24,019 nt of DNA from a virus: positions 1 to 24,019 of the IMG/VR virus record IMGVR_UViG_3300015371_000175. One strand, 5' to 3'. The notes beneath the pieces were generated by a model. That model did not search any database, had not been told where the DNA came from, and saw only the letters and a program-made list of their open reading frames with translations. Both the position numbers and the translations under genes were made by a program. Shown here piece after piece: positions 3,801 through 22,788 of the stretch; position 1 is the stretch's first letter, and each line of letters begins with the position of its first letter.

Positions 3801-6568
3801 ACATCGCCGACGCCGTGGCCCGGAACGATCTCGCCGCCCGCCGCCTTGTGTTGGCCCTTCATCGTCACCGCGTGGAACTTGATCGGCGAGACGCCGCCGC
3901 CCAACCCCTTCGCGATCTGATTGAAGTTCTTGGACACGGTGCCCATACCGTCGCCGACCGCGCCGGAGAACGAGCCAATGTTCTGGCTCGACACCCGCTG
4001 GAACTTGTCGATGGAAGTCTGGAGGTTGTGGGCGTCGCGTCCGGTGTCACGCATGTCGTCGCCGGACTTCTTGCTCATGCCGTGAGTCGTGTGAGTGAAG
4101 TCGGTGATGGAGTGGGACGCTCGCGGAATCGTCCGGTGGCTCATCGTGTCAAACGGATTGATGAGGTTCTTCTTGAAGACGTTGCCGAGCGGGTCAGTGT
4201 TCCGCTTCTGCTCCTTGAGGCTCTGATTCCAGCGGTTGGTCTCCTGGATGACCGGGCCAACCTTCTGGTAGTAGACCTGGAAGTCCTTGGTGAGGTTGTG
4301 CTGGCTGACGCCGAGGTTCTGGACGGCCGTCTTGCCGTCCTTCAGCGACTTCGCGAACTTCGGCCCGACTTCCTGCGCCGCCTTCAGCAACAGCCCGCTC
4401 TGCTTCGCCGCCGCCTTGCTCTGGGCTTGCTGCGCTTCCTTGAGCTTGTTGTTGATGTCACTGAGCTTCTTATCCGACGCGCCGCTCTGCTCCGCCGCGA
4501 TGAAGTGCTTCTTGAGGTGCCTGACCTGATCCTTCAAACCTTCGTTGACCTGCTTGATGTGCTGGTACTCAAACGCGATCTGATGGGTGGCGAACTTCCG
4601 CTGCTGACCGGCGAGCTTCTCCGCGTTCTCCTCGCGCTTCAGCGCCTTGCGGTGCGCCTCGACCGCGTCATGCAGCTGCTTCTCCGCGCGGATCGCGGGC
4701 ATCGACTCGCGCCGATGGCGCTCCAACACGTTCTGGTAATGCTGCTCGGCTCGCTTGACGTTGTCCGCCGTCCGCTTGACCTGCTCATGAGACTTGGACA
4801 CCGCGTTCGCCGACTTGTGATATGAGTCAACGGCATCCTTCGCACTCCGGAATCCCTTGGTGATGTCGCGCGACGCCTTGTGAACCTTTTGGAGCGCGCC
4901 GATGTGCTTGGCCGCTTGCGAGTCGAACAGACCGCCGAGCCAACCGCCGAGGAACGAGCCAATGCCCGAGCCGACGAGCGCGCCCGGTAGCCCTCCGACA
5001 AGTCCGCCGACGAGTCCCCCAGCGAGCGCGCCGCCGGTCTTGAACAACGTCTGCTTGGTGTCACCCTTGATGCCGCTCGACACGATGTTCGCGATTCCGG
5101 CGACCGCGATTGCGGCGGGCAGAGCCTTCGCCAACGCTCCGCTGAGGCTGAATGCCCAAGCGCGACCGGCAGCCGCCAGCCCCACCGTTCCCGACTCCGC
5201 GACGATGGCGACGCCGAGCGTCTTGGCGATGGTCGCCGCGAGCGTCCGTCCGATGGCCGCGCCGAGAACGCCCCACTGACCAGCGATGGTAATGCCAGCC
5301 GCGATGATCGCGAGCTTGCCCGCGAGGTCCGCGTGGATGAAGCCGGTGATGATGCCCTTGACGATGGCAAAGCCGCCCGCCACTGCCGCCGCTGCGAGCT
5401 TCGGCCCCATGGAGGACACCACGTGCGCCGCCATATCGGCGAGCGTGCTCAGCTTGTCGGAGAAGCTACCAGGTCCGGTGAGAACGTCCGTCACGTCCTT
5501 GACCGCCGACGCAAACGCCGGGGTGATGACGTCGCCGAGCTTGATGAGCACCACCTGTAGCTCGTTGGCGGCCTCTTGGAGCTTGACGCCCGGCTTGTCC
5601 TGGACCTGCTTCCACTTCTTGCCGAAGTCCTCAGTGGCCTGACCGATGCCGTTGAACTTCTTGTGGAGGTCATCGACGTTCTGGATCAGGGTCAGGATCG
5701 CCGCTGAGCTTCGCCCTCCGCCGAACGCCTCCGAGATCAGCGGCCCAGCCTTCGCTCCGGATAGCCCGGCTTGGTCGAGCTTGTCCGACAACAGCTGGAT
5801 GGCAGCGGGCAGTCCCTTCGTCCGCATGACCTCGCCGAGCTTGTCTGCAGACAGACCTATCTGGCCCAACGCCTTCGCCGCCTCGTCGGATGGCGCGGCC
5901 ATGAGGCTGAAGGTCATGCGCAAACGAGTCGCCGACTGCTGCGCAGACATACCCTTTGAAGTCATGACGTCGAGCGCCGAGCCGACATCCTGCAGCGACA
6001 GGCCAAACGCCTTCGCCGCCGGGAGCACGCCGGTGGATAGCGCGCCGGTCATCTCGTCCATCCGCATGTTACCTTGACCGACGATGGCGTTGAGCATGCC
6101 GATGGTCTCGCCCATCTTCTCGGTGCCCTTGATGCCGGACTGCATCGCGCCAACTACCGCGTTGGTCGTGTCCTCCAAGTCAGCCTGGCCGACCTCCGCA
6201 AGCTTCGATGACGCGGACAAGACCTTCATCGCCTTCGCGCCGCGATAGCCAACCGACTCGATATGGAACAGCGCGTCAGCCAGTTCCTTCGGAGCGAAGG
6301 TCCGGTGCGTGGATAGCTCCAGCACCTGATCGCGTAGATCCTTGATCTCACCAGCCGACGCTCCGGCCGAAGTCGAGATCAGCCGCATCGACTTGTTGAA
6401 GTCCATGCTGGCATTCACAGCCGCCACGCCGATACCGGCGACGGCGAGCGCACCAACCTTGCCCACCGTCGCCAGTCTCGACTTCAGCGTTGACGACTTC
6501 GCCTGCTTCATCAGCGGAGCGAAGTTGCCGATGATGTCTACATAGCCTGTTCCGACTTTGGTGGCCAC
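863..6568 (-). CDS. Tape measure protein with M15 peptidase-like and lytic transglycosylase domains
   Basis: This 1901-aa protein sets tail length and occupies the tail lumen; at about 0.15 nm per residue it would give a tail near 285 nm. Residues 55-300 match the TP901-type tape measure core (STSAGASAGEIKDL, FGGGRSSAAILTLI). Residues 380-545 are hydrophobic and glycine-rich, and 565-800 are charged coiled coil. Residues 1035-1044 fit the SxHxxGxAxD zinc motif of VanY/M15 peptidases, completed by DHLHV at 1101-1105. Residues 1168-1270 resemble a soluble transglycosylase, with probable catalytic Glu1196 in SEAGWDP and the AAGLAQALP motif. A Gly linker (1299-1309) leads to a Lys/Asp/His-rich region, and the end carries the common GIAGEAGPEVI tail motif. 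The start is GTG, two bases after the chaperone stop. The two domains probably help cell-wall penetration during DNA entry. Confidence 0.96.
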   Translation of the reverse strand: MATKVGTGYVDIIGNFAPLMKQAKSSTLKSRLATVGKVGALAVAGIGVAAVNASMDFNKSMRLISTSAGASAGEIKDLRDQVLELSTHRTFAPKELADALFHIESVGYRGAKAMKVLSASSKLAEVGQADLEDTTNAVVGAMQSGIKGTEKMGETIGMLNAIVGQGNMRMDEMTGALSTGVLPAAKAFGLSLQDVGSALDVMTSKGMSAQQSATRLRMTFSLMAAPSDEAAKALGQIGLSADKLGEVMRTKGLPAAIQLLSDKLDQAGLSGAKAGPLISEAFGGGRSSAAILTLIQNVDDLHKKFNGIGQATEDFGKKWKQVQDKPGVKLQEAANELQVVLIKLGDVITPAFASAVKDVTDVLTGPGSFSDKLSTLADMAAHVVSSMGPKLAAAAVAGGFAIVKGIITGFIHADLAGKLAIIAAGITIAGQWGVLGAAIGRTLAATIAKTLGVAIVAESGTVGLAAAGRAWAFSLSGALAKALPAAIAVAGIANIVSSGIKGDTKQTLFKTGGALAGGLVGGLVGGLPGALVGSGIGSFLGGWLGGLFDSQAAKHIGALQKVHKASRDITKGFRSAKDAVDSYHKSANAVSKSHEQVKRTADNVKRAEQHYQNVLERHRRESMPAIRAEKQLHDAVEAHRKALKREENAEKLAGQQRKFATHQIAFEYQHIKQVNEGLKDQVRHLKKHFIAAEQSGASDKKLSDINNKLKEAQQAQSKAAAKQSGLLLKAAQEVGPKFAKSLKDGKTAVQNLGVSQHNLTKDFQVYYQKVGPVIQETNRWNQSLKEQKRNTDPLGNVFKKNLINPFDTMSHRTIPRASHSITDFTHTTHGMSKKSGDDMRDTGRDAHNLQTSIDKFQRVSSQNIGSFSGAVGDGMGTVSKNFNQIAKGLGGGVSPIKFHAVTMKGQHKAAGGEIVPGHGVGDVFHTAVPVGSFILNKKASAIWPMLAGGGPLDKKTGRRHPLTPVSLEPGERLFDPDAVSQIGLRTLRAVNNQFPRFATGGTAGMKPAAAALATYFVKTFGGGISSGLRAGDTGSFHSLGEAFDWVPGNANAGTDYANKIGPSILEGIHNPAGWGNMVSWDSGNRVSPSFWGSATWADHIDHLHVATNQGIGAKASMGVQSIPDMVFKGPDGGLHDIGQGVLDKAVNEVNDFLAKHSGGLGLDVPTGPIQQMAKQMLDQMGWANQWPQFNALEMSEAGWDPTAQNSSSGAAGLAQALPPSKYPPGAWPYHGLESAKLQLQWMMQYIKQRYGSPAAAWSFHQANNWYREGGLVRQLLAGGGDVGGSAGGFGGTDIPPGYPGGGGGGSGGGFHGKIRTMHEYIQKLLGTKTGQFNKQDDITKAFQKTIKDLDLPKGLLDKMHERAISVATDRENESRLESLDEILSFQYDQLAPALDAAMEATDIAAQLGLAKTGQEQLDMLKGTLYNLLPNDARRALDMLDPHGYLIPSMIGGKNEKGWIWQEIMDLVDLSNSAVTLGGSQKDVMAKLKAWETLGDHKVSDFVKEVRDTLRKKEHMHHQIDRALDHDKHHIKRDTDWLGDHPLTLMNHVTPDDVYKRFKDLGFKVSGNEITPGDEKDMKWHKIREPYTHTFINKVFNKYKDAAKSPNEGDWWRRLKELADSEIDKEHQDLLNKLFKAKPTSDEYKHHKKNDVIKLREHEAQFRRYLAYMTGDKSFRVGRPEPWDDFSTFADATSRSIMGMLRDKKEAIGGATIPTGIGLDFGGESFLDAVNEIRGFGAPPGVWKKLPPLGTYGGSLLDAYTSWATWLPDQPFDTSQTFDGGAADGGDDGGLADLLREQIAILQRQLIVSRAEQPVLASYAGLFAKGGAIPAGMFGIAGEAGPEVIEGPANVYPMGGGGAVELHLNGNIYTEYDLDKAIQVKVNGQLMRTRSHGRRSFALRGS

Positions 6569-7011: not shown

Positions 7012-7364
7012 CCCTCAGACAACCCGTATGCCGCAAGCGCGTCATTCATCAGGTCGATGAGCGGGGACGTCCCCGATTCCACGTCCAGGTAGACGTCATC
7101 CTCATCGAGCTTGTCCAGCACGCGAGCGAATTGCTCCGCGCCGATGACCGACTCGATGAGGCGAGCGTTGCCCTGGAAGTCGCCCTCCCGAAGGATGCCG
7201 AACCTCCAGACAACCGACTCCTTGAGCTTGGGAGGGAGGTCCAACTCCATCCCCCTGAACTCGATGACCACCCGGTCCTCGTCCGACTCCGCTATGGCGG
7301 CTGTGGCCGCCGCGCCATCTTCTGACGCGGCAGCCTTCCCAGCCTTTGCTTTGGCCGTTGCCAT
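6984..7364 (-). CDS. Tail assembly chaperone, upstream frame (gpG-like)
   Basis: This 126-aa protein lies between the major tail protein and the tape measure, where siphoviruses encode the gpG/gpGT chaperones. Its ATG at 7364 shares one base with the TGA of the major tail gene (TGATG), so translation is probably coupled. Residues 1-30 are Ala/Lys/Glu-rich and probably disordered. Residues 31-110 (VVIEFRGMELDLPPKLKESV, then EQFARVLDKLDEDDVYLDV) resemble the compact helical domain of actinophage chaperones. A GGGGGAA run near the end (7014-7008) allows a -1 shift into the next frame. The unshifted product ends ASTGS at a TAG. The assignment rests on position, the frameshift arrangement and similarity in style; primary sequence in this family is poorly conserved. 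Confidence 0.88.
   Translation of the reverse strand: MATAKAKAGKAAASEDGAAATAAIAESDEDRVVIEFRGMELDLPPKLKESVVWRFGILREGDFQGNARLIESVIGAEQFARVLDKLDEDDVYLDVESGTSPLIDLMNDALAAYGLSEGESEASTGS
7008..7014 (-). promoter_or_regulatory. Probable programmed -1 frameshift site (GGGGGAA)
   Basis: On the minus strand the zero frame reads GAG GGG GAA near the end of the upstream chaperone gene. Slipping back one base at G-GGG-GAA re-pairs glycine tRNA perfectly on GGG. It joins the two chaperone frames, whose coordinates differ by exactly the offset a -1 shift requires. The downstream frame is open from the slip to 6571 and its first residues look like genuine chaperone sequence. The A-site pairing after slippage (GAA to GGA) is imperfect, so the exact slip mechanism is inferred. 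Confidence 0.72.
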
Positions 7365-7948
7365 CAGCTGAAGTTGCCGAAGGCCAGGTCATCGTCGCCG
7401 ACGAAGTACCAGCTGCGGTCCTTGTCGTCGGGTGACAGCCCGTTGAACGTCACGGGTAGCACGGCGATGCCTGTACGGACAAGCTGCGTCTCGACGGCCT
7501 CCGTGACGTTGCCCCGATAGATGACGACACGGCAGTTCCGGTCGCCGTCAGCGAAGTCAACGATGAGGCTGTAGTCGGGCAGTGCGTCCTGATCGGCAGG
7601 CGGGTCATACCTGAACACGCCAGCCGCAGGCTCAGACCACTCTCCGCCGCCGAAGGCGAGCGCAAAGTTGTCTTGATTCCACTGCTCCAGTGAGAACGCG
7701 GCCATGATGGCGCGGGCGGTGACGAGTCTCCGGACAGGAGTCGCCTTCTGCCACGCGTTGATGTCCTCCACGGTGGGCGTCGCCGTGAATGTCACGCCGT
7801 CCTCCGTGGTGTAGCCGAGGTCCGTGTAGTCCGGCGTGGAGGCTGTTGGGCCATCCGCGTCTGCCGGCAATGACGGCGCATCGGCTAGGTTGGCGAGCCG
7901 AACATTGCCCGAGATGGCAACGACAAGCTCCTCGGATTGGAACGCCAT
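7364..7948 (-). CDS. Major tail (tail tube) protein
   Basis: This 194-aa protein stands directly upstream of the tail chaperones and the tape measure, the standard place for the tail tube subunit. Its N-terminus (MAFQSEELVVAISGNVRLAN) and the segment LGYTTEDGVTFTATPTVEDI match the pattern of actinophage tail tube proteins, in which an early 'GYTTEDG' stretch introduces the beta-barrel tube fold. The C-terminal half is rich in beta strands (YSLIVDFADGDRNCRVVIY) and ends at a TGA overlapping the next ATG. An AAAGGA ribosome site lies 9 nt upstream of the ATG. The gene is preceded by a 71-nt gap with two small hairpins, which fits separate control of a highly expressed structural gene. No C-terminal immunoglobulin-like domain is present. 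Confidence 0.9.
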   Translation of the reverse strand: MAFQSEELVVAISGNVRLANLADAPSLPADADGPTASTPDYTDLGYTTEDGVTFTATPTVEDINAWQKATPVRRLVTARAIMAAFSLEQWNQDNFALAFGGGEWSEPAAGVFRYDPPADQDALPDYSLIVDFADGDRNCRVVIYRGNVTEAVETQLVRTGIAVLPVTFNGLSPDDKDRSWYFVGDDDLAFGNFS

Positions 7949-8771: not shown

Positions 8772-8934
8772 TGATGTCCTCCTCCGCGTATGCGACCTCC
8801 ATCAGATGCGCCGACGAGTTGGCCCGGTACTCGTCGCCGAAGTGCTCCACCAGAAGGTTCTGGCGCTTGACGATCCCGGCCTGTTGCCATTCGTCTGACG
8901 CCTTCAATTCATCCACCGTTGCGTACTGGCTCAT
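8761..8934 (-). CDS. Small acidic protein of unknown function (57 aa)
   Basis: I do not recognise this protein. It runs MSQYATVDELKASDEWQQAG to ...AEEDINAE and has no cysteine pairs, membrane segment or obvious DNA-binding motif. The ATG at 8934 overlaps the TGA of the stopper gene (ATGA), and a GGGAGG ribosome site lies 10 nt upstream, so it is very probably translated. An earlier in-frame start at 8952 would extend it by six residues but lacks a matching ribosome site. The gene lies between two connector proteins. It may be a small neck component or chaperone, but that is only positional inference. Confidence 0.7.
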   Translation of the reverse strand: MSQYATVDELKASDEWQQAGIVKRQNLLVEHFGDEYRANSSAHLMEVAYAEEDINAE

Positions 8935-9287
8935 GATCCGTTGCCCTCCCATAGCTCAACGCGGAGCGCCACGCACTCGACGTGCCATACGTCCGGCGAG
9001 CCTTGCCTGGCGTCCCAGCCGTTGCCGACTAGCTCAAACTTGCCGATGCCCTCGATGACCATCTCATCGCCCGTCCGAATGTCGGTGCCGGTCGGCAGGT
9101 AGATCTTCCAGGTGTCCAGCGCCGCCTCGCCCGCCTGCTCCGGCTCGTCGGATTGGACCTGCTGCGCCTCGCATGGCGACTGAAACTCGTGAGGTGTCCG
9201 GACCTCGTTGCCAAGCTCGTCCACTTCATCCGACTGGATCATCTGCTTGATCATTGCGGTCTTATTGAAGAGCGCGGTCAACGACAT
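8931..9287 (-). CDS. Head-tail connector (stopper-like) protein
   Basis: This 118-aa protein has the order expected of SPP1 gp16 / HK97-type stoppers: an N-terminal strand region (NKTAMIKQMIQSDEVDELG), a long hydrophilic loop, then WKIYLPTGTDIRTGDEMVIE and KFELVGNGWDARQGSPDVWH. The 'lP.gtdi..gD.v.i.G..f.V.G.p....p..HveV' pattern is typical of the beta-barrel connector that closes the portal channel after packaging. The ATG at 9287 overlaps the preceding glycosyltransferase by 10 nt, and a GGAGG site lies 13 nt upstream. The gene is separated from the adaptor (14482-14943) by eight non-structural genes, whereas in most siphoviruses the two are adjacent. Confidence 0.83.
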   Translation of the reverse strand: MSLTALFNKTAMIKQMIQSDEVDELGNEVRTPHEFQSPCEAQQVQSDEPEQAGEAALDTWKIYLPTGTDIRTGDEMVIEGIGKFELVGNGWDARQGSPDVWHVECVALRVELWEGNGS

Positions 9288-9955
9288 GCGGCTAGAAGTT
9301 CCTCCATGCGGTCAGGGTAGCCATTCGCCTTAGAGTACCGCTTGTACAGGGCCCAACTCTCGTGGCTTCCCATGCGCCGGTCGTGTCGCTCCGGCGACGG
9401 ATGCCACATGTGGTAAAGGTCAGCTGTGCCGCGCCACGGCTCGCCTTCCATCGTCGCGAGCGCCAGTCCCCATGACTGGTCCTCCTGGCCCCAGCCGGTG
9501 AACCGTTCATCGAGCGGCACCGCCATCAGCGTCTCACGTTGCGCGATGACAAAGCCTCCGCCCTTGACGCCGTCATACGGCCGACTGGACGGCGGCACTG
9601 GCATCGGCTTGTTGTTGTACAACGCCCAAGTCGCCTTCTTCGTCAACCTGAATACCTCCAGGTGCGGGATCGCCCATGACGCCACTCCGCACGTCACAGC
9701 CCTCACGGCGGCCGGTAGCCCATCCGTCCAGACATCGGCGTCCGCGACGATGACGGGGTCATCCGACGCGCGCATCTTCTCGACTCCACGGTTGACTAGT
9801 TCCCCTTTACAGAACGGCCGGAACGGATCGCCGCGCTCGATCACCACGTGGTAGTCTGGCAGCTTGATCCGGTACTGCTTCTTGACCCAAGCCAACGCTT
9901 CGATGCGGGCATGCTCATCATCGGCCGCCGCGAACGGGATGACTACGCCGGGCAT
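9278..9955 (-). CDS. GT-A glycosyltransferase with polypeptide-GalNAc-transferase-like C-terminal region
   Basis: The 225-aa protein has a DAD metal and nucleotide-sugar binding triad at residues 72-74 (VADADVW) and GGGFVIAQRETLMAVPLDER at 132-151. It continues into FTGWGQEDQSWGLAL and finally HMWHPSPER at 182-190. The 'GG..a..re.f..vggfDE.f.GwG.ED...g.Rl' arrangement with a trailing H-x-x-H-P is characteristic of the C-terminal region of GT27-type and related GT2 enzymes (glyco_transf_7C), which use UDP-sugars. It lacks a membrane anchor, so it is probably cytosolic. It overlaps the upstream GT by 13 nt and the stopper gene by 10 nt. Substrate and acceptor are unknown; a virion protein or a host surface glycan are both possible. 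Confidence 0.85.
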   Translation of the reverse strand: MPGVVIPFAAADDEHARIEALAWVKKQYRIKLPDYHVVIERGDPFRPFCKGELVNRGVEKMRASDDPVIVADADVWTDGLPAAVRAVTCGVASWAIPHLEVFRLTKKATWALYNNKPMPVPPSSRPYDGVKGGGFVIAQRETLMAVPLDERFTGWGQEDQSWGLALATMEGEPWRGTADLYHMWHPSPERHDRRMGSHESWALYKRYSKANGYPDRMEELLAACR

Positions 9956-10707
9956 GGGTCCGCGATCAGTTCGGGGTCATCCGGCTCGCGCCAGATGTTG
10001 GACCAGAAGTATTCAGCCAGCGCCTCCTCGCCTCCGCTCTCAAGCATCCGACCAAAGCCCCGGAGATGCGGGCTGACTTCCTCCGGAAGGTCGGCCGCCG
10101 CCTTGCGCCCGTTGTAGCCGTTCCGGACCTTGCTGATGAACTGATTCGGCGAGCGGTATGGGAAGTGACGGACCTCAAGCTTGAATGGTCGCGTCGCCGC
10201 GTACTGGCCGTGATAGGTGACGCTGTGGTAGCCCTCGCTGAACTGCATGAACGGCATCACTCGGCACGCGACCTTGAGGAGCGGGTTGACGGTGCGTCGG
10301 CGATAGCGCATCCGGTCAAACGGATGGTCGCCGTGCATGCCCTCTGTTGGTACATGCTCGAGAAGCTCCGCCGTGAACACCCAAGTCTTCCGCGCGTTGC
10401 GCCTGATGACCGTCGCAATCGGTTCACGACTCGTGCTGTACCAGATCTCATCGGCGTCAAACGGCACGACATACTTGCCGCCGGTATCTATCGCCAGGGC
10501 TGTGACCTTCCGGGCCTGGTAGTGACGCGGGTCAGGATCGTCGCGTACCTCAATGGGCAACGACGCGAGTATCTCACGCGTGCCATCCGTCGAGCCGTTA
10601 TCCACAGCCACCACGCGGTCCACCTGTCCGAGCATATGGGTGATCGTCCGCTCGATGACATCAGCCTCGTCCTTGACGAGGCACACGCCGACTACTTCAC
10701 AGGACAC
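9943..10707 (-). CDS. Family 2 glycosyltransferase
   Basis: The 254-aa protein begins SCEVVGVCLVKDEADVIERT, the typical 'vvGv.lvkNEad.ie.ti.....'start of GT2 enzymes, then RVVAVDNGSTDGTREIL at residues 31-47. It carries the FDADEIW metal-binding motif, with Asp84 and Asp86. The C-terminal half contains HFPYRSPNQFISKVRNGYNG, a stretch often found in the same subgroup of bacterial and phage GT2 proteins. The start is a GTG at 10707, overlapping the methyltransferase stop by 16 nt. I preferred it because the GT2 fold begins right there and upstream in-frame sequence is low-complexity shadow. The protein has no membrane segment. It should transfer a sugar from a nucleotide donor; the acceptor is not evident. 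Confidence 0.88.
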   Translation of the reverse strand: MSCEVVGVCLVKDEADVIERTITHMLGQVDRVVAVDNGSTDGTREILASLPIEVRDDPDPRHYQARKVTALAIDTGGKYVVPFDADEIWYSTSREPIATVIRRNARKTWVFTAELLEHVPTEGMHGDHPFDRMRYRRRTVNPLLKVACRVMPFMQFSEGYHSVTYHGQYAATRPFKLEVRHFPYRSPNQFISKVRNGYNGRKAAADLPEEVSPHLRGFGRMLESGGEEALAEYFWSNIWREPDDPELIADPCPA

Positions 10708-11252
10708 AGCACCATCCCGTTCTTCCGGTCGTCCTCGTTGGGGTTGTTGCGCCGGTTGAAGTCGGTGAGTTTGCGGTCCACCTTCCAACCGGCGGCACGG
10801 AACAGCCCTTGCCAATAGCCTCGCGGCCGGAGGTTGATGTGCTGGTGTCCGACTTGCCCAGGAGGAGCGGCCGTGAAGTAGATGGCCCGCTCCGCCGACC
10901 GGGTGATGTTCCTGACGAGCCGACCGGCCCAACACGACTCGATGTGCTCCGCGACCTCGCGACACCAGACCAGATCGGCCTTCAGCGTCACAATGTCGGT
11001 GAGATCGCGGACCATGTACCGCTCGCTCTCGAACAGCACGTGATCGCGTAGCTCCTCCTTGCCATCGACGCCGTACACATCCAGCCCGGCTTGGAGCATC
11101 CCCCAAACGTCTACGCCCAGCCCGCAGCCGAAGTCAAACGCCGTCCGCAGGTGGTACTTGTTGATCATCAAGTCGAGCGTGTCGCGCCAGTAGTCCTCCG
11201 GCAGCATTGTCCGCTCGTACAGCGTTGGGTCGGTGTACGCCGTGTCACTCAC
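10692..11252 (-). CDS. Class I SAM-dependent methyltransferase
   Basis: This 186-aa protein shows the Rossmann-fold motifs in order. Motif I is FDFGCGLGVDVW (residues 39-50), the acidic end of strand 2 is YGVDGKEE (60-67), and CREVAEHIE (97-105) follows strand 4. The closing region FTAAPPGQVGHQHIN and a W-rich tail resemble small phage and bacterial methyltransferases found next to glycosyltransferases, often annotated Methyltransf_23/11. A catalytic NPPY/DPPY motif is absent, so DNA base methylation is unlikely; sugar or other small-molecule methylation is more plausible. The start is a GTG at 11252, overlapping the zinc-ribbon stop by 8 nt (GTGAGTGA), with no strong ribosome site, which suggests coupling. 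Confidence 0.86.
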   Translation of the reverse strand: MSDTAYTDPTLYERTMLPEDYWRDTLDLMINKYHLRTAFDFGCGLGVDVWGMLQAGLDVYGVDGKEELRDHVLFESERYMVRDLTDIVTLKADLVWCREVAEHIESCWAGRLVRNITRSAERAIYFTAAPPGQVGHQHINLRPRGYWQGLFRAAGWKVDRKLTDFNRRNNPNEDDRKNGMVLCPVK

Positions 11253-11367
11253 TCGGCGGCAACCCTTCGCAGCATCCGTCGATGACCTGCTTGCACTCGT
11301 CGCATTGAAGGTGCGAGCCGACCCACACGACCGCGTTGGCCCCGCACCACGGACAGACGGCCTCCAT
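11245..11367 (-). CDS. Small zinc-ribbon protein (40 aa)
   Basis: This short gene reads MEAVCPWCGANAVVWVGSHL, then QCDECKQV and DGCCEG, ending PPSE. The CPWC and CDEC pairs, 14 residues apart, form a classic four-cysteine zinc ribbon, and two further cysteines follow. The ATG at 11367 comes immediately after the TAG of the metallophosphoesterase gene, and a perfect AGGAGG ribosome site lies 8 nt upstream, so expression is likely. The stop overlaps the methyltransferase GTG. Zinc ribbons of this size often mediate nucleic-acid or protein contacts. Its partner could be the adjacent phosphoesterase or methyltransferase, but the sequence does not say. Confidence 0.8.
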   Translation of the reverse strand: MEAVCPWCGANAVVWVGSHLQCDECKQVIDGCCEGLPPSE

Positions 11368-12618
11368 CTACCAGCCCTCCTGATCGCGGTGACGGATGAA
11401 CAGCGGCAACTGCGCGGTGATGCCGTGCTCCGGCGTGACGACGAAGAGCAACTGCTGCGGTGGCTCCGGCTCAAAGCCCTTCGCCCTCGCGTACTCGTCA
11501 TAGCCCTTGCCTGCGCCATTGACAATGACGCCCTTCGCCGGTAGCGACATCAGCTGATGCCAATGACCCATGAGCAGCACATCAAACGGATGGCCCTCCG
11601 CCTCCGCTTGCTTCCGGATGCGGTGAGCGCGGAGCGCGACCGGGAGCATGGCTCCCTGAATGCCGCTGCCGCCTCGCGCCTCGTCGCCGTGCTCCGCCCT
11701 GAACTTGACATCGTACACCTGGAAGTCGGCGCTGATGCCGTCGCTGATGGAGAAGGTGACACGCTTGTCGCCCTTGAGTTCCTGAGCGACGAGTCGCGAC
11801 ACCATCGTGTCGGCGTTGTGACGCGACCGGCCCTTGTAGCGCGGCTTCTTGGAGTCGCGCGGATGATTGCCCGGCACGCCCACGTAGTGGACCTTGCCGA
11901 AGTTCTGAGCCAGTAGCTTGACGCCAGCCGCCGTCCACGCCGCCGCCGGAGGAACCGCCTCATAGTTGGACCACTCGTTGGTCTCCCGTAGCTCCTCGTG
12001 GATGTCGCCGCTGATGGTGTCGCCTAGATTGACGAGCACAATGCCTTCATACTCGACTCCGCGAAGGTAGTTGCGGGCCACGAGGATCGACCGCTCAAAG
12101 AACCGGCCGATGCGCTGCTCCGCGATCTTCGGGTTGTAGGCGTTGTAGTCCGCCATCTCCTCAGGCTGGACAACCTCGCCGACGTGCCAATCCGAGTACA
12201 GCCCAACGACTATCGCCTTGCGCTGCTCGCCCTTCGGCTTTCTCACAGCCCAGCGCGGCGGAGGCACATTCTTGATCTTGCCAGACAACTCGATCTGCTT
12301 CTCCAGTCGGCTGACCTCCTGTTGCGACTCCGACAGCTGGCGCCGAGCTTCGCGCGCCTCCGCCGCCGATGCATTGGCGCGGTTCTTCGCCTCGTTGAGA
12401 CGCTTGACTAGTTGCCGCGCTTCTTTCGTCGGCTCAGCAGCAGCAGTCTCAGCAAAGCCCTTCGGCAATTCGCCTCCGGGATGATCCGCTTCCCAACGCA
12501 TCAGCAGCGTGTTGCGCTTCACCTTGTGCGCCCGTGCCGCCTCCGCCCAACTGCCGTGTTCGCCCTTCTCAAGCGCCTCGATGGCAGCCGTGACTTTGGG
12601 GTCTCTCTTAGCGGGCAT
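11368..12618 (-). CDS. Calcineurin-like metallophosphoesterase with N-terminal HTH and coiled coil
   Basis: The 416-aa protein has three parts. Residues 1-45 (AAIEALEKGEHGSWAEAARA, then KVKRNTLLMRW) look like a Psq/Hin-type helix-turn-helix. Residues 62-112 are an Ala/Glu/Arg coiled coil. Residues 134-400 form a metallophosphoesterase: SDWHVG (Asp143, His145), NLGDTISGD (Asp200), GNHPR (Asn251, His252), RAEHGD (His310) and GHWHQ (His352, His354). All expected dinuclear-metal ligands are therefore present. The family contains nucleases such as SbcD/Mre11 and phosphatases; LGDTISGDIHEEL is a form common in phage homologues. The ATG at 12618 overlaps the deacetylase stop by 11 nt. The HTH suggests nucleic-acid targeting, so a nuclease or nucleotide-end processing role is possible, but activity cannot be read from sequence alone. 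Confidence 0.88.
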   Translation of the reverse strand: MPAKRDPKVTAAIEALEKGEHGSWAEAARAHKVKRNTLLMRWEADHPGGELPKGFAETAAAEPTKEARQLVKRLNEAKNRANASAAEAREARRQLSESQQEVSRLEKQIELSGKIKNVPPPRWAVRKPKGEQRKAIVVGLYSDWHVGEVVQPEEMADYNAYNPKIAEQRIGRFFERSILVARNYLRGVEYEGIVLVNLGDTISGDIHEELRETNEWSNYEAVPPAAAWTAAGVKLLAQNFGKVHYVGVPGNHPRDSKKPRYKGRSRHNADTMVSRLVAQELKGDKRVTFSISDGISADFQVYDVKFRAEHGDEARGGSGIQGAMLPVALRAHRIRKQAEAEGHPFDVLLMGHWHQLMSLPAKGVIVNGAGKGYDEYARAKGFEPEPPQQLLFVVTPEHGITAQLPLFIRHRDQEGW

Positions 12619-13228
12619 TCTGATCCATCCGGTAGTAGACCTCAGTCATCAAGATCTCCTTCATGTGAGTAGTTGGCCGCACCTGCGACTGATAGCACTC
12701 GACGGCCTCGCGCTTTTGCGACTCCGGCATCCGCCGTCCAACTGGTCGCGGTTCCACGCCCTCAAGCCGTCGATGAAGTTCCTTCGGGTACATCCGCGCA
12801 TACGGCGCATCGGCGTACAGCCATGCCTCAAGGTTACATTGATGGGCTACTCGTCGGAAGGCGTCGCTGACTGCGATGTGATCCGGATGGCTGATGCCCA
12901 GCGGGCCAGCAACCGGCTCGTCGTCATCGACACCTTGTAGCGCCCACTCAACTGCCTCGATGATCTCTGAGTCCTCGCGACCGTATGCGAGGTCCTTCAC
13001 ATCCATATGCACAGCAGTGAATCCTAATGCCTCCGCAGCGCAAATGTCCTCGTGGCGGCGAGCTTCCATGGCATCGGCTGCGAAGTCAAAGCCGGAGTCG
13101 ATGTCAAACATCGACGGCGCGAGGTCGCCCGGAGGCACACCGGCGCAGATCGTGATCACGGTCGCGCCTTCGCACAGCCCTGCTGCGGACCAGACCGCGT
13201 CATCCAGGTGCGGTGACAAGATGATCAT
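12608..13228 (-). CDS. PIG-L/LmbE family N-deacetylase
   Basis: The 206-aa protein starts MIILSPHLDDAVWS, the first zinc motif of the PIG-L/LmbE family (usually PHPDDE; here His7, Asp9, Asp10). GPLGISHPDHIAV at residues 109-121 follows, supplying the third zinc ligand (His117). The segment RRHEDICAAEALGF (58-71) is the usual 'R..E...A...LG' helix. Family members remove acetyl groups from N-acetylglucosamine-type sugars in GPI, mycothiol, teicoplanin or lincomycin pathways. Here, beside four glycosyltransferases, it probably deacetylates a sugar on a glycan or sugar precursor. Glu is replaced by Ala in the first motif (PHLDDAV), which also occurs in other functional members. The ATG overlaps the upstream TGA (ATGA). 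Confidence 0.9.
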   Translation of the reverse strand: MIILSPHLDDAVWSAAGLCEGATVITICAGVPPGDLAPSMFDIDSGFDFAADAMEARRHEDICAAEALGFTAVHMDVKDLAYGREDSEIIEAVEWALQGVDDDEPVAGPLGISHPDHIAVSDAFRRVAHQCNLEAWLYADAPYARMYPKELHRRLEGVEPRPVGRRMPESQKREAVECYQSQVRPTTHMKEILMTEVYYRMDQNAR

Positions 13229-13842
13229 CCGAACACCGCCGCCTCGATCTCGCGATGGACGCGCATGATGGTGTCGTGCGACTTCCGGTTGCGTGAGTTC
13301 GGCCGGAGCCACGCCTTGTAGACGGCTTTGTGGATCGGCTCGATGGTCCCGCCCGCTTGCCAGGCTCGCGCCCAGAGCGCCCAGTCCTCAGACCAATCCC
13401 ATTCCTCCCAACCGCCGACGCTTTGAGCCAAGCCCGTCCGGATCGCGGTGCCGATGACGGCCCAGTTGCCGAAGCGGAGGCAATCGGCGGAGCACTCGTG
13501 CTTGTGGCCCCAGACGCGCGGCATGAACGGCCGCCCTCTCGAGATCGCGCCGGTTCCGCGCACCTGCATGATCCGGGGCACCCGCATGTCGGCTGTGCCC
13601 TCAGCCATCGCCTCGACGTAGCCCGGCGTCAACTGGTCATCAGCGTCCAAGTGGATCACCCACGGTGTCTCGACTTGCGCCAAACCGGCGTTCCTCGCCT
13701 CCGCCAACGTCGTGCGATGCTCGTGGATGACAGGGACGCCTTGAGCACGCGCGGAAGGTAGCGCCCTCTTGGTGGCCAGGCGTCGCCAGAGTTCCTTCCC
13801 ATACGTGCCGATGACTACCGTTGCGTCAAGCTTTTCGCCCAT
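13225..13842 (-). CDS. Family 2 glycosyltransferase (DADD type)
   Basis: This 205-aa GT-A protein has an N-terminal nucleotide-binding strand (DATVVIGTYG, residues 6-15), TLAEARNAGLAQ at 45-56 and the metal-binding WVIHLDADDQLTPGY at 61-75. The acceptor side holds GGWEEWDWSEDWALWARAWQ (143-162), where the acidic ED is the usual catalytic-base position of GT2 enzymes. The ATG at 13842 overlaps the previous glycosyltransferase by 28 nt. I chose it because homology-like sequence begins here, while the in-frame extension upstream is Arg/Ala-rich shadow. It has no membrane helices. It belongs to a run of four glycosyltransferases with a deacetylase, so a multi-sugar glycan is the likely product; donor and acceptor are unknown. 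Confidence 0.88.
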   Translation of the reverse strand: MGEKLDATVVIGTYGKELWRRLATKRALPSARAQGVPVIHEHRTTLAEARNAGLAQVETPWVIHLDADDQLTPGYVEAMAEGTADMRVPRIMQVRGTGAISRGRPFMPRVWGHKHECSADCLRFGNWAVIGTAIRTGLAQSVGGWEEWDWSEDWALWARAWQAGGTIEPIHKAVYKAWLRPNSRNRKSHDTIMRVHREIEAAVFG

Positions 13843-14504
13843 AGCCTGTGCCGTTGTCGGAACAGCCGCTTGTCTCGCAGCCCGTTGCTCTGTCCGAGTC
13901 TGTAAACCTCGTCCCATTCGCGAGTGCCCCAAACCGGGTGCGGATGTTCAATGACGATGTCGTCCGCGAAGTGCCACTCTCCACGCTTCCATGCGAGGTT
14001 GCAAAGCTCGTTGTCGGCGTACTGGTGATGGTAGCCCTCGTGGAACACATGCCCCGGCTCGCGCCATGCAGCGCCGGGGTGCTCGATGTAGTCGCGCCGG
14101 ACCAGCTGCGCCGTCGCGTGATCGCGGTTCCGCGTCCGAGGAGTCTTGTCGTTGGTACCGATGACAGCCTTGTCGAGCTTCGTCGCCTCGACTGTCGCCT
14201 CATACCAGCCCGGCTTGAACTTGACATCGTCGCCGCAGCACAGCACCCAGTCGCCCTCCGTGACGGCGACAGCAGTGTTGATCTTCTTTGGGAAGGTGCC
14301 GCTCCGGACGATGCGGTTGACATCTAGCCCGGCGACAAGCGTCTGGATGACCTCGTTGGTCTTCGCGTCGTCCTCGTCGGTGACGAAGGTGATGCGGTAG
14401 CTCCGGCGCGGCGTGTAACGCCGGATGTCATCGGTGACGACTAGAACATTGCCCGGCCGCTTGAGGGTCGGGATGATGATGTCAACAGTCGGACTCGGTG
14501 CCAT
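13815..14504 (-). CDS. GT-A fold glycosyltransferase (GDD type)
   Basis: The 229-aa protein opens with MAPSPTVDIIIPTLKRPGNV, a standard GT2 N-terminus, and has ITFVTDEDDAKTNE at residues 38-51. The metal-binding WVLCCGDDVKFKPGW at 86-100 includes Asp92 and Asp93. The second half has a striking aromatic and His-rich stretch (GHVFHEGYHHQYADNELCNL, 151-170) and EHPHPVWG, the acceptor-binding area in this type of phage and bacterial enzyme. The ATG at 14504 lies 23 nt inside the adaptor gene, so the first accessory gene is physically interlocked with the head module. That suggests long-term residence rather than a recent insertion. No membrane segment is present; the acceptor is unknown. Confidence 0.86.
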   Translation of the reverse strand: MAPSPTVDIIIPTLKRPGNVLVVTDDIRRYTPRRSYRITFVTDEDDAKTNEVIQTLVAGLDVNRIVRSGTFPKKINTAVAVTEGDWVLCCGDDVKFKPGWYEATVEATKLDKAVIGTNDKTPRTRNRDHATAQLVRRDYIEHPGAAWREPGHVFHEGYHHQYADNELCNLAWKRGEWHFADDIVIEHPHPVWGTREWDEVYRLGQSNGLRDKRLFRQRHRLWAKSLTQR

Positions 14505-14943
14505 CCGGATTGATGTACAGGTACTGATCCGGCAAAGTGACCTCTGGAATGTCATCCAGTATGGTCCGCACCGGCTGCCATGCCGCGCCATGCGCGACGA
14601 TGCGCCTGATCAGCCGTTGCTCGGTGTCGGACAGTAGCAGGTTGGTCCCGGCGTCCTCGCCGGGGTCAGGGAACCGCTTCGTGCGGCTGTAGTCGCCCAG
14701 CTGCTCTTGATCGCTGAGCAAGCCGTCCGGATTCTGCGCTGCGCGCACAACTGCTGTCACAGCCACAGAGCGGATCGCGGCGGGGACAGGGTCAAGCTCG
14801 TCGGCCCAAGCATCATCACGGCCCACCGACTCGGCGATCATGCTGCTGACCTCGTCCAGCAGGGCTGTGTACTGCGTTTCCTCCTCCGCCGTCAACTCTC
14901 GGCCGAGTCGGACACTGACGTCTCCAGTTTCTGCTAGCGCCAC
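14482..14943 (-). CDS. Head-tail adaptor protein
   Basis: This 153-aa protein directly follows the major capsid gene, the normal position of the SPP1 gp15 / HK97 gp6-like adaptor that binds the portal. It is helical: LTAEEETQYTALLDEVSSMI, then VPAAIRSVAVTAVVRAAQNP and a C-terminal LSDTEQRLIRRI helix. The central 'p..ir.v....a.R...NP.G...e..G.ys' pattern is characteristic of actinophage adaptors. I chose the GTG at 14943, with a GGAGG ribosome site 5 nt upstream, over a TTG four codons earlier that would overlap that site. The last 23 nt overlap the first glycosyltransferase gene. The gene is preceded by a strong stem-loop. Confidence 0.85.
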   Translation of the reverse strand: MALAETGDVSVRLGRELTAEEETQYTALLDEVSSMIAESVGRDDAWADELDPVPAAIRSVAVTAVVRAAQNPDGLLSDQEQLGDYSRTKRFPDPGEDAGTNLLLSDTEQRLIRRIVAHGAAWQPVRTILDDIPEVTLPDQYLYINPDGTESDC

Positions 14944-15025: not shown

Positions 15026-15928
15026 TTAGGAGCCCTGGCCCAGATCGATCTCGACGGCCGCTTCCTCGCGGGTCGTCTCGATGCCGTACAGGACGTCGAT
15101 GCTGACCTCGTCCTGCTTGTAGGTGTTGTTGTAGGCGTAGACCACTCGGAGACTCAGTCCCCGGTAGTTCTGCACCGCCACCTGACTCGACGCGAGACCC
15201 TTGGGTGCGTCGAGCGGCCGGATGGCTAGCGTGATCGCGCTCCGATGGAACGCAACGCCGTCAGCCTGGCCCTTTGAACCGGCACCGTCGCCGAGGACCT
15301 GCGTCTCGTATGTGTCGAATCCGAGCAGACGGCCGACATTCGCCTCGCGGAGAGCGTCAGTCGTCCCGGCACGGTTCGCCGAGATGAGCAGGTCATCGCC
15401 GAGGACCGCGCTGATGCCCTCCGGCGACAGGACCGCGTAGCGGTCAAGCGTCGGGAGCTTGTTGCGGCTGAGAATCGCTCGCGCCGCCCGGAAGGCGTCG
15501 TTGGCGTTCTCCTCGTCTGCACTCGCGACCTGACCGGCGGCATTCGCCGCGTCCACGAGTTCCTCCGCCACGTCGCCGTCGATCTTCTGAGCGATGGCTT
15601 CCATGGCGGGGTTGAGCAGCTGGACCTGGAAGTCCTCGATCTCCAGAGTCATCTGCTCGTCCGTGACCGGGAAGGACACGTTGGCGATGGTGTCTAGCTT
15701 GATGTCGATGGAATCCTCGACAACGTCCTGCAGGGTGATGCCCTGCTGACGGTCAAAGACCTCCGCATCGAACACCGCTGGCTTGCGCACGGTGACCGTG
15801 TCGCCGACCTTGCCGCGAAACTCCACGTCAAAGTCGCGCCAGACCAGACCACTCATGACCATCGTGTTGTACAGCGTGGCGAGTCCCGTGCTCGCGATCA
15901 CGCTGGGCTTGATGAACGTGTTGGCCAT
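15026..15928 (-). CDS. Major capsid protein (P22 gp5-like, HK97 fold)
   Basis: This 300-aa protein starts MANTFIKPSVIASTGLATLY, the diagnostic opening of P22-coat-type major capsid proteins in actinophages. It continues VWRDFDVEFRGKVGDTVTVR (residues 30-49), the family's N-arm and E-loop region. The middle contains a helix-rich P-domain (EIEDFQVQLLNPAMEAIAQK), and the sequence ends with VSIDVLYGIET and an acidic tail. The ATG has an AAAGG ribosome site 9 nt upstream. It follows the scaffold gene directly and is flanked by stem-loops on both sides. No delta-domain or protease cleavage site is apparent; P22-type shells mature by scaffold release rather than head proteolysis. It should be the most abundant virion protein. 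Confidence 0.95.
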   Translation of the reverse strand: MANTFIKPSVIASTGLATLYNTMVMSGLVWRDFDVEFRGKVGDTVTVRKPAVFDAEVFDRQQGITLQDVVEDSIDIKLDTIANVSFPVTDEQMTLEIEDFQVQLLNPAMEAIAQKIDGDVAEELVDAANAAGQVASADEENANDAFRAARAILSRNKLPTLDRYAVLSPEGISAVLGDDLLISANRAGTTDALREANVGRLLGFDTYETQVLGDGAGSKGQADGVAFHRSAITLAIRPLDAPKGLASSQVAVQNYRGLSLRVVYAYNNTYKQDEVSIDVLYGIETTREEAAVEIDLGQGS

Positions 15929-16932: not shown

Positions 16933-17094
16933 TCAGACATCGACGTTCTCAGGCGCCACCAATGCGGCAACGCCCATCGCCGCCGCGTGGTAGCTCATCC
17001 CCGAGTCCTCCGCGACCTGACGGATGACCTTGTCAATCCGGTCATCGTTCTCGCCCGCCTCCGCCATCGCCTTCTTGATCTGCTCGTCGGTCAT
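16933..17094 (-). CDS. Small hypothetical protein (53 aa) between MuF and scaffold genes
   Basis: This frame reads MTDEQIKKAMAEAGENDDRI, then VIRQVAEDSGMSYHAAAMGV and ends APENVDV. It is predicted to be helical and soluble, with no cysteines or membrane segment. The ATG at 17094 overlaps the TGA of the MuF gene (ATGA), which supports coupled translation. I do not recognise a family. The segment RQVAEDSGMSYHAAAMGV resembles a small helix-turn-helix-like hairpin, but it is too short to call. Its site between portal/MuF and scaffold genes suggests an accessory head role. Confidence 0.65.
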   Translation of the reverse strand: MTDEQIKKAMAEAGENDDRIDKVIRQVAEDSGMSYHAAAMGVAALVAPENVDV

Positions 17095-21862: not shown

Positions 21863-22788
21863 ACACCAACGAGTCGCCCGGACGTGTACAGCTTTGGCGT
21901 GTAGTCCGCGTACAACTGGAAGTTGGTCCACGCCGGTCGCGGAGTCACGAGGTCGGGCTGCCATAGCCCGCCGTCATAGTCGAGCGTCCCCGGAGTCGCG
22001 CCGGACGTGTCGTGATACCCGTACCACATCACGCGCGAGATCAGCCAGGTGTTCTTCCGGTAGAGCATCTGTTGAAAGAAGTCCGCCAACATCCCAGCCT
22101 TGGTGGCTTCGCCGCCGACATCGCTCGCCCGATAGCCGCACTCATCAATGATGATGTAGCGGTCGGACAACCCCTTGTTGATGAGCATCTGACGCATCTC
22201 CAAGACTCCGGCGGCGGTGGCATCAGCTGATGTGGAGCGATATGCGTGGTATCCGACGCCGAAGAACTTGCCCATGCCGAGCCTAGCCTTGATCGCGTTG
22301 ATCGCTGTCGCGTGGTACGCAATCGCCGACGAGCTAGCCTGCGAACCTCCGATGTAGATGCGCGCGTCCGGCTGGATGGACTTGATGACCTTCGCCGCCG
22401 CGTTGACAGCTATGCCAAAGTCCGTCGCGGTCCCCGGGAACTCGTGCCCGCTCCAAGTCGGCTCGTTGCCGAGGATGTAGTCCACTGGCTTCGTCGGGAT
22501 CGTCGGATTGGCTGGCCAGAAGGAGCCGGTCGGCTTGTACCGATTGACGAGCGCTGCGATGTTCACAGCCATGCCCGCGTCGGTGAGTGTCCCGTTGCCG
22601 ATGGAGATGAGCGGCCGCATGCCGTACTTGCAGATCAGCCGTAGCCGCCGGTCGATGACGTCAAAGTTGGTAGTGGTCCAACCGGCGGTGATCCGAACTT
22701 GGCCGCACCCGGTAGCGCCGAGCGTCGCGACCTGCGGCTCAGTCATCTCTGGTAGATGTGGAGTGCAGCCAAACAGCGAGTTGCCCAC
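21859..22788 (-). CDS. TIM-barrel (clan GH-A) glycoside hydrolase; possible endolysin
   Basis: The 309-aa protein has the layout of clan GH-A enzymes such as GH5 and GH39. ILGNEPTW (residues 105-112) gives the acid/base Glu109 after strand 4, and IIIDECGYR (212-220) gives the nucleophile Glu216 after strand 7. VRITAGW, FFGVGYHAYRS and VMWYGYHDT fit other barrel strands. There is no signal peptide or cell-wall-binding domain. The GTG start at 22788 has a perfect AAGGAGG 8 nt upstream, inside the overlapping 53-aa membrane protein gene. It follows a run of small membrane proteins. Possible substrates are wall polysaccharide, capsule or glycan-bearing virion parts; peptidoglycan is not implied by the family. 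Confidence 0.85.
   Translation of the reverse strand: MGNSLFGCTPHLPEMTEPQVATLGATGCGQVRITAGWTTTNFDVIDRRLRLICKYGMRPLISIGNGTLTDAGMAVNIAALVNRYKPTGSFWPANPTIPTKPVDYILGNEPTWSGHEFPGTATDFGIAVNAAAKVIKSIQPDARIYIGGSQASSSAIAYHATAINAIKARLGMGKFFGVGYHAYRSTSADATAAGVLEMRQMLINKGLSDRYIIIDECGYRASDVGGEATKAGMLADFFQQMLYRKNTWLISRVMWYGYHDTSGATPGTLDYDGGLWQPDLVTPRPAWTNFQLYADYTPKLYTSGRLVGV

What the first reader, a model, noticed from the sequence alone, without database searches (positions are those of the whole stretch)
9278..14504. Glycan-modification cassette lodged inside the head-tail connector genes
Eight overlapping genes (four GT-A glycosyltransferases, PIG-L deacetylase, metallophosphoesterase, zinc ribbon, methyltransferase) separate the adaptor (14482-14943) from the stopper (8931-9287), which are normally adjacent. 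They are co-transcribed with late structural genes and interlocked with them by overlaps of 10-23 nt. Late timing and location suggest the product is made during assembly, for instance sugars on capsid or tail proteins (virion glycosylation is known in some mycobacteriophages), or a change to the host envelope. A deacetylase together with four transferases implies a specific branched or deacetylated glycan rather than a single sugar.
Basis: partly seen in the sequence, partly recalled or inferred. Interest (0 to 1): 0.78.

Follow-up and report, generated by a model that had tools for sequence, protein, structure and literature searches.

The report
Phage virion C-terminal glycosylation cassette
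This uncultivated phage carries a block of sugar-transfer genes between two of its head-tail joining genes, and comparison with over a hundred relatives suggests the sugars are put on the last amino acid (a serine) of its capsid and tail-tube proteins, so sugar-coated phage particles may be predictable from genome sequence alone.

Summary
Six glycan genes (four GT-A glycosyltransferases, a PIG-L deacetylase, a methyltransferase) plus a metallophosphoesterase and a zinc ribbon lie between the adaptor (Ad1) and stopper (Hc1). In cassette-free relatives these two are adjacent.

The block is a recurrent, co-inherited cassette (GTa-GTb-variable slot-GTc-GTd). All detected GTs lie between Ad1 and Hc1 in 28 of 39 de-duplicated GT-bearing contigs. 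GTa has no match in 50,697 phage records; GTb and GTd have 5 and 9.

New evidence points to the acceptor. In GT-bearing phages the major capsid protein (MCP) and tail tube (TT) end in Ser, mostly Gly-Ser: MCP 37/37, TT 40/40. GT-free homologues: MCP 5/64 (three on truncated contigs), TT 0/6. Non-acceptor proteins such as TerL show 1/38. The MCP link survives a tree-based paired test. Isolates agree: Che8 and a Corndog relative, from the group with demonstrated virion glycosylation, end in Ser and encode a GTd relative.

Best reading: virion C-terminal O-glycosylation, here with de-N-acetylation and possible methylation. It is a new variant of a known kind, widespread in uncultivated phages. 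The initiating enzyme differs: no counterpart of Che8 gp110 was found. Metallophosphoesterase and zinc ribbon are probably passengers. No glycan has been measured here.

The parts
13815..14504 (-). GTa, GT2-type glycosyltransferase (GT-A)
   Evidence: PF00535 E 1.4e-9, phrog_14945 E 4e-11; conserved DD motif in A3
13225..13842 (-). GTb, GT2-type glycosyltransferase; N-terminal part of Che8 gp108 is a distant relative
   Evidence: PF00535 E 3.5e-8; LDADD invariant; Che8 gp108 E 3e-16
12608..13228 (-). PIG-L/LmbE-type zinc de-N-acetylase
   Evidence: PF02585 E 4.8e-8; SPHLDDAV and HPDH motifs; best solved relatives are the teicoplanin pseudoaglycone deacetylase Orf2 and Dbv21, E ~1e-8
11368..12618 (-). 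metallophosphoesterase with predicted N-terminal HTH and coiled coil; probable passenger
   Evidence: phrog_284 exonuclease E 4e-50; relatives' cassettes lack it; named-phage relatives are exonucleases/DNA polymerase II small-subunit-like
11245..11367 (-). 40-aa zinc ribbon (CPWCG...CDEC); probable passenger
   Evidence: sequence; not detected in relatives
10692..11252 (-). class I SAM methyltransferase
   Evidence: PF13489 E 3.5e-6; conserved in L002 (64% identity) and in many relatives' cassettes
9943..10707 (-). GTc, GT2-type glycosyltransferase
   Evidence: PF00535 E 3e-11
9278..9955 (-). GTd, GT-A fold transferase; homologous to Che8 gp109 and Firecracker gp35; the common denominator of glycosylating phages
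   Evidence: AlphaFold pLDDT 95; PDB best folds chondroitin synthase, B4GalT1/7, K4CP, GalNAc-T3; Che8 and Firecracker hits
15026..15928 (-). major capsid protein; predicted acceptor = C-terminal Ser300 (codon 15029-15031, ...LGQGS)
   Evidence: HK97-type fold, closest to the MCPs of Douge and Che8
7364..7948 (-). tail tube protein; predicted acceptor = C-terminal Ser194 (codon 7367-7369, ...FGNFS)
   Evidence: phrog_117 E 9e-26; C-terminal Ser invariant in A7
14482..14943 (-). head-tail adaptor Ad1, upstream border of the cassette
   Evidence: phrog_137
8931..9287 (-). head closure/stopper Hc1, downstream border; itself ends ...GNGS (possible further acceptor)
   Evidence: phrog_501; Hc1 ends in Ser in 22 of 44 GT-bearing loci

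Best explanation
The block is a virion-glycosylation cassette. It is made from the structural-gene transcript, so its enzymes are present while heads and tails are assembled (inferred from the gene order and overlaps). Several GT-A transferases build a short O-linked glycan on the hydroxyl of the C-terminal Ser of the major capsid protein (Ser300) and the tail-tube protein (Ser194). This acceptor is inferred from a near-perfect comparative association. GTd is the enzyme shared with mycobacteriophages whose capsid and tail tube are known to carry C-terminal glycans; other members extend or replace steps. The PIG-L protein probably removes the acetyl group from a HexNAc already attached to the peptide, leaving a free amine, and the methyltransferase may cap a hydroxyl (both inferred from homology). 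The result would be particles with every capsid and tail-tube subunit tagged at its C-terminus by a modified oligosaccharide, most likely a surface coat. The benefit (shielding, stability, adsorption) is unknown. The metallophosphoesterase and zinc ribbon are probably later insertions with another job.
For: (1) Co-inheritance at the site: all GTs between Ad1 and Hc1 in 28 of 39 de-duplicated GT-bearing contigs, 26 of 32 with two or more GT families; the rest lie before Ad1 or after Hc1, still among structural genes. The cassette persists where TerL has diverged to 32% identity or is undetectable. (2) MCP C-terminus: 37/37 GT-bearing homologues end in Ser against 5/64 without GT, three of the five on contigs truncated just past the MCP. 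On a tree built without the C-terminus, 8 independent pairs: same direction 7.4 on average, opposite 0, median p 0.016. (3) TT C-terminus: 40/40 with GT, 0/6 without; the terminal Ser is one of only five invariant columns among 19 divergent TTs despite varying tail length; further GT-less TTs end FA, TG, LL, AA, AA, AA. (4) Specificity: in GT-bearing loci TerL 1/38, portal 5/49, scaffold 1/27. Terminal Ser uses both TCN and AGC codons, which points to selection on the protein. (5) Isolates with other MCP types: MCP and TT both end in Ser in Che8, Firecracker, prophiGD91-2, phiGD23-1, prophiGD102-1 and Ardmore (all GT-positive); neither does in AGM4, phiSASD1, Jace, RHph_TM27A (GTd and GT2 profiles negative) or Keanu, Aleemily, PSonyx (GTd profile negative). 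(6) Literature: glycans at the C-termini of capsid and tail tube of mycobacteriophages (PMC12619734); Che8, Corndog, Myrna glycosylated (PMC12363180). GTd is homologous to Che8 gp109 and Firecracker gp35.
Against: No glycan has been measured on this or any relative in the set. L044 (GTa, GTb, GTd; MCP ends GVSA) and L084 (MCP ends AGR) break the rule. The GT essential in Che8/Corndog (gp110/gp38 family) is absent from the window and from 12 relatives' records, so the initiating enzyme must be a different one. GT-less status rests on stretches of at most 10 kb each side. Two GT-less MCPs (L281, L292) end in Ser, though L281 has an unassigned Stealth-like gene next to the MCP. For Hc1/Ad1 the Ser enrichment could partly reflect overlapping start codons.
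Confidence: 0.8

Rival explanations
1. The cassette remodels a host-surface polysaccharide or glycolipid (superinfection exclusion or serotype conversion) and only happens to sit among the late genes.
For: GT2 enzymes, PIG-L and methyltransferases are common in envelope polysaccharide clusters; the protein sequences themselves do not exclude it.
Against: It predicts no link with the C-termini of two virion proteins, yet the link is near perfect and survives the tree test. Retention within the connector genes across diverged lineages is unexplained. Homologues of GTd occur in phages with demonstrated virion glycosylation.
Confidence: 0.07
2. The GTs glycosylate phage DNA bases.
For: Phage GTs are often DNA-modifying (noted in PMC12619734).
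Against: No thymidylate synthase/dCMP hydroxymethylase family member in nine relatives' virus records of 28-62 kb; location in the late connector block; the C-terminal Ser association.
Confidence: 0.02
3. The cassette glycosylates virion proteins, but mainly others (decoration proteins, connector, minor tail proteins), and the terminal Ser of MCP/TT serves another purpose.
For: Hc1 (22/44), Ad1 (14/48) and Tc (10/34) also often end in Ser; some relatives carry Ser/Gly/Thr-rich repeat proteins between MCP and Ad1.
Against: Those decoration proteins are absent from the window and from L004 and do not end in Ser; only MCP and TT show the near-universal association; capsid and tail tube C-termini are the known sites in mycobacteriophages.
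Confidence: 0.08
4. Coincidence of ancestry: a lineage happened to have both the cassette and a Ser-ended MCP/TT.
For: Related phages share both traits; shuffles show both traits are clustered on the tree.
Against: At least 8 supported independent pairs in the MCP tree, none in the opposite direction; the same link in unrelated TT proteins and in Che8-type and Corndog-type capsids.
Confidence: 0.03

Closest known systems
Virion C-terminal glycosylation of mycobacteriophages Che8, Corndog (cluster O) and Myrna (Freeman et al. 2023; full text not held, read through PMC12619734, PMC12363180 and PMC11600133)
   Same: Phage-encoded GT sets with or beside a methyltransferase; capsid and tail tube as targets; GTd is homologous to Che8 gp109 and Firecracker (Corndog-type) gp35; Che8 and Firecracker MCP and TT end in Gly-Ser or Ser.
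   Different: Different gene set and place (between Ad1 and Hc1; Corndog has it between portal and protease, Che8 at the right end). No counterpart of the essential gp110/gp38 transferase; adds GTa, GTc and a PIG-L deacetylase; found in uncultivated phages and prophages such as in Parafrankia.
Glycopeptide pseudoaglycone deacetylases (teicoplanin Orf2, Dbv21)
   Same: Closest solved relatives of the window's PIG-L (E ~1e-8), with SPHLDDAV and HPDH motifs; from established knowledge these act on an N-acyl-glucosamine already attached to a peptide.
   Different: Shorter phage protein, only locally similar; the substrate here is inferred.
GT7/GT27-type GT-A transferases (B4GalT1/7, chondroitin synthases, GalNAc-T3)
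   Same: Predicted fold and WGQED motif of GTd.
   Different: About 15% identity; donor and acceptor unknown.

Membership tests
Actinophage virion C-terminal glycosylation systems (Che8/Corndog type) | Glycan attached to the C-termini of capsid and tail-tube subunits | not testable with these tools
   Needs mass spectrometry of virions; only comparative support here.
Actinophage virion C-terminal glycosylation systems (Che8/Corndog type) | Phage-encoded glycosyltransferases homologous to those of Che8/Corndog | tested here: met
   GTd profile hits Che8 gp109 (4e-26), Firecracker gp35 (1e-30); GTb hits Che8 gp108 (3e-16).
Actinophage virion C-terminal glycosylation systems (Che8/Corndog type) | The transferase shown essential there (Che8 gp110/Corndog gp38 family) | tested here: not met
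   Absent from the 24-kb window (best E 0.7) and from 12 relatives' records of 28-62 kb. The window is a fragment, so its own genome is not fully tested. Filed as a variant, not as the same system.
Actinophage virion C-terminal glycosylation systems (Che8/Corndog type) | Acceptor proteins with a hydroxyl residue at the C-terminus (proposed here) | tested here: met
   Window MCP ...GQGS, TT ...GNFS; Che8 ...KTGS and ...SDGS; Firecracker ...LVGS and ...KGDS.
PIG-L/LmbE deacetylases | Family profile and metal-binding motifs (P)H-x-D-D and H-x-D-H | tested here: met
   PF02585 above its cut-off, E 4.8e-8; SPHLDDAV and SHPDH aligned to teicoplanin pseudoaglycone deacetylase.
GT-A glycosyltransferases | GT-A fold with an acidic (DxD-like) motif | tested here: met
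   GTa-c: PF00535 above cut-off; GTd: AlphaFold model and Foldseek, invariant D72/D74 and near-invariant WGQED.
DNA-hypermodification systems | Base-modifying synthase (dCMP/dUMP hydroxymethylase, PF00303) | tested here: not met
   No hit in nine relatives' virus records; the window itself is only part of a genome.

The most novel reading that the evidence does not exclude
A C-terminal Ser (typically Gly-Ser-COOH) on both MCP and tail tube is a general, genome-readable acceptor tag for phage virion glycosylation. Lineages assemble the glycan with interchangeable cassettes around a conserved GTd, and this lineage starts the chain with an enzyme unrelated to Che8 gp110 and displays a de-N-acetylated (free amine), possibly methylated sugar.
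Probability: 0.55. Interest if true: 0.78.

Novelty: new variant of a known kind. Interest (0 to 1): 0.64.

Why it matters
Virion glycosylation of phages is known from a few mycobacteriophages. This work indicates it is common in uncultivated, probably mostly actinobacterial phages and gives a simple test from sequence: a C-terminal Ser on two unrelated virion proteins plus a GTd-type transferase. That makes the question 'which phages have sugar-coated particles, and with what sugar?' answerable from genomes. It names exact residues to check by mass spectrometry and offers a compact Ser-tag O-glycosylation toolkit (initiator, extenders, deacetylase, methylase).

Tried and rejected
DNA-level search of the region in named phages: no match. 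PIG-L and GTa in named phages by tblastn: none, so function had to come from uncultivated relatives. A PIG-L scan of IMG/VR gave one weak locus only. A pan-tail-tube alignment was too divergent to scan with; a narrower one worked. Idea that decoration proteins between MCP and Ad1 are the acceptors: rejected, since they are absent in the window and L004 and do not end in Ser. Idea that GTd alone marks the minimal cassette: in the 'GTd only' loci other sugar genes are present (GT-B, nucleotidyltransferase-like, FkbM). Idea that Che8 gp110 corresponds to a window GT: no significant match. DNA modification: no support. Promoter/terminator scan: at chance level, uninformative. Corndog's own record was not found under the accessions tried; Firecracker was used instead. 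Freeman et al. 2023 is not held, so whether it already names the terminal Ser as the site could not be checked.
Full report
WHAT IS THERE. The window is a whole IMG/VR virus record of 24,019 bases, classed linear and probably a fragment. All phage genes lie on the minus strand in the usual late order: terminases, portal, MuF-like, scaffold, MCP, adaptor, [cassette], head closure, tail terminator, tail tube, chaperones, tape measure. Pfam and PHROGs confirm GT2 transferases GTa, GTb and GTc, a PIG-L deacetylase and a class I methyltransferase. GTd is only a weak GT7C match in Pfam, but its AlphaFold model (pLDDT 95) is a clear GT-A fold nearest to chondroitin synthases, beta-1,4-galactosyltransferases and a GalNAc-transferase. 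The metallophosphoesterase belongs to a phage exonuclease family (phrog_284). Gene overlaps of 23 nt (Ad1/GTa) and 10 nt (GTd/Hc1) tie the block into the structural genes.

THE CASSETTE IS REAL AND RECURRENT. Scans of IMG/VR with the MCP, GTb and GTd and an iterative profile search of the fetched loci show the order Ad1-GTa-GTb-[slot]-GTc-GTd-Hc1 in many contigs. After removing duplicates, 39 GT-bearing contigs have both borders. All GTs lie between Ad1 and Hc1 in 28, before Ad1 in 8 and after Hc1 in 3. The slot is variable: usually a fifth GT (here called GTe; 29 of 50 slot proteins), methyltransferases, FkbM proteins or an epimerase. In the window it holds PIG-L, the exonuclease-like protein, the zinc ribbon and the methyltransferase. 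L002 (MCP 77% identical) has the same PIG-L-methyltransferase-GTc-GTd run but not the exonuclease or zinc ribbon. In cassette-free relatives Ad1 and Hc1 are adjacent. GTb is phage-specific: in 84,980 bacterial and archaeal genomes close relatives occur only in a Parafrankia soli contig that also carries the phage structural genes (58%) and in a short contig binned as Acidobacteria that carries Ad1, GTa and GTb (51%); the next best is 27%. In 50,697 named phage records GTa and PIG-L have no match, GTb five and GTd nine.

THE ACCEPTOR. Looking at the structural proteins of GT-bearing loci, nearly all MCPs and tail tubes end in Ser, mostly Gly-Ser. Test on the MCP family: 37 of 37 full-length MCPs from loci with any of the four GTs end in Ser; 5 of 64 without do. 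Three of those five lie on contigs cut just past the MCP, and one of the three is part of a contig that carries the cassette elsewhere. On a tree built without the C-terminus, GT presence changes about 10 times and terminal Ser 12 times. Of 8 well-supported independent pairs, Ser follows the GTs in 7.4 on average and never goes the other way (median p 0.016). Tail tube: 40 of 40 with GT, 0 of 6 without. In a 19-sequence alignment the terminal Ser is one of five invariant columns although the tail length varies. Further GT-less tail tubes end in FA, TG, LL, AA, AA and AA; one (L326, ES) has only 2 kb of upstream sequence. Other late proteins of the same loci do not show this: TerL 1/38, portal 5/49, scaffold 1/27. 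Hc1, Ad1 and Tc are intermediate and may be occasional acceptors or affected by overlapping start codons. Both TCN and AGC codons are used for the terminal Ser, so the constraint is on the protein.

ISOLATES. Named phages with other MCP types form a small test outside the discovery set. Che8 and its relatives phiGD23-1, prophiGD102-1 and Ardmore, the Corndog-type Firecracker, and prophiGD91-2 all encode GTs, and in all six both MCP and tail tube end in Ser. GTd homologues are Che8 gp109 and Firecracker gp35; Ardmore has a GT2 match and only a weak GTd match. AGM4, phiSASD1, Jace and RHph_TM27A lack hits to the GTd and GT2 profiles, and Keanu, Aleemily and PSonyx lack hits to the GTd profile; in these seven neither protein ends in Ser. 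Literature read here states that glycans sit at the C-termini of capsid and tail tube of mycobacteriophages (PMC12619734) and that Che8, Corndog and Myrna are glycosylated, with Che8 gp110 and Corndog gp38 essential (PMC12363180). The Corndog GT block with its methyltransferase inside the structural genes was noted earlier as a possible capsid-modifying set (PMC4351075). The primary paper (Freeman et al. 2023) is not held, so it could not be checked whether it already names the terminal Ser.

HOW IT PROBABLY WORKS. Shown here: gene content, recurrence, site, folds, and the association with terminal Ser. Inferred: the enzymes act on the C-terminal Ser hydroxyl of MCP and tail tube during assembly; GTd is a central step because it is the enzyme shared by all complete GT-bearing MCP loci in the set and by Che8 and Firecracker; PIG-L acts on a peptide-bound HexNAc, since its nearest solved relatives are the teicoplanin pseudoaglycone deacetylases; the methyltransferase may cap the sugar. 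Unknown: which enzyme adds the first sugar. The gp110/gp38 family, essential in Che8/Corndog, is absent from the window and from 12 relatives' records, so this lineage must start differently. Unknown also: the sugar identities and the benefit.

WEAK POINTS. L044 and L084 break the rule. Absence of GTs is judged from up to 10 kb each side. The MCP sample partly comes from GT scans, which inflates the simple contingency test; the tree-based paired test and the isolates depend on that less. The isolate test is small. No biochemistry was possible.

VERDICT. It is a new variant of a known kind, more widespread than the literature read here suggests, and directly testable.

Noticed in passing
window 17091-18773 (-): MuF-like protein with a C-terminal extension holding a zincin motif (MVIHELGHAFDNG) and a weak LPD1 match, like MuF-linked polymorphic effector domains.
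   Followed up: partly
window 21859-22872 (-): Protein between small and large terminase that looks by eye like a TIM-barrel glycoside hydrolase (LGNEPTW, IIDECGYR); no PHROG match and no credible Pfam match. In L002 the same slot holds an unrelated 395-aa protein.
   Followed up: no
L007 11704-12708 (= L124): GTd and head-closure protein Hc1 lie in one uninterrupted 334-aa frame: a possible natural GT-Hc1 fusion, or an assembly error. A GTG at the junction could restart Hc1.
   Followed up: partly
L113, L111, L100, L093, L139: Alternative cassette between MCP and Ad1 in Streptomyces-type prophages: GT-B-like (PF13524), nucleotidyltransferase-like, FkbM methyltransferase, then GTd; their MCPs end in Gly-Ser.
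   Followed up: partly
L281 10655-11665, L275, L008 5199-6215: Stealth-like (sugar-phosphotransferase-like by eye) gene directly after the MCP; L281 and L275 MCPs end in AAGS, L008 ends in VDA. No Pfam match for L281.
   Followed up: partly
L006 6022-7098, L007 7612-8736, L002 10993-13369: Putative decoration or fibre proteins with Ser/Gly/Thr-rich or WDLR-type repeats between MCP and Ad1 in some cassette-bearing phages.
   Followed up: no
window 863-6568 (-): Tape measure with an embedded transglycosylase-like region (phrog_12661, residues 1173-1266) and a possible peptidase motif; it also ends in ...RGS.
   Followed up: no
window 11368-12618 (-): Exonuclease-type metallophosphoesterase lodged inside a glycan cassette, unlike all relatives examined.
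   Followed up: partly
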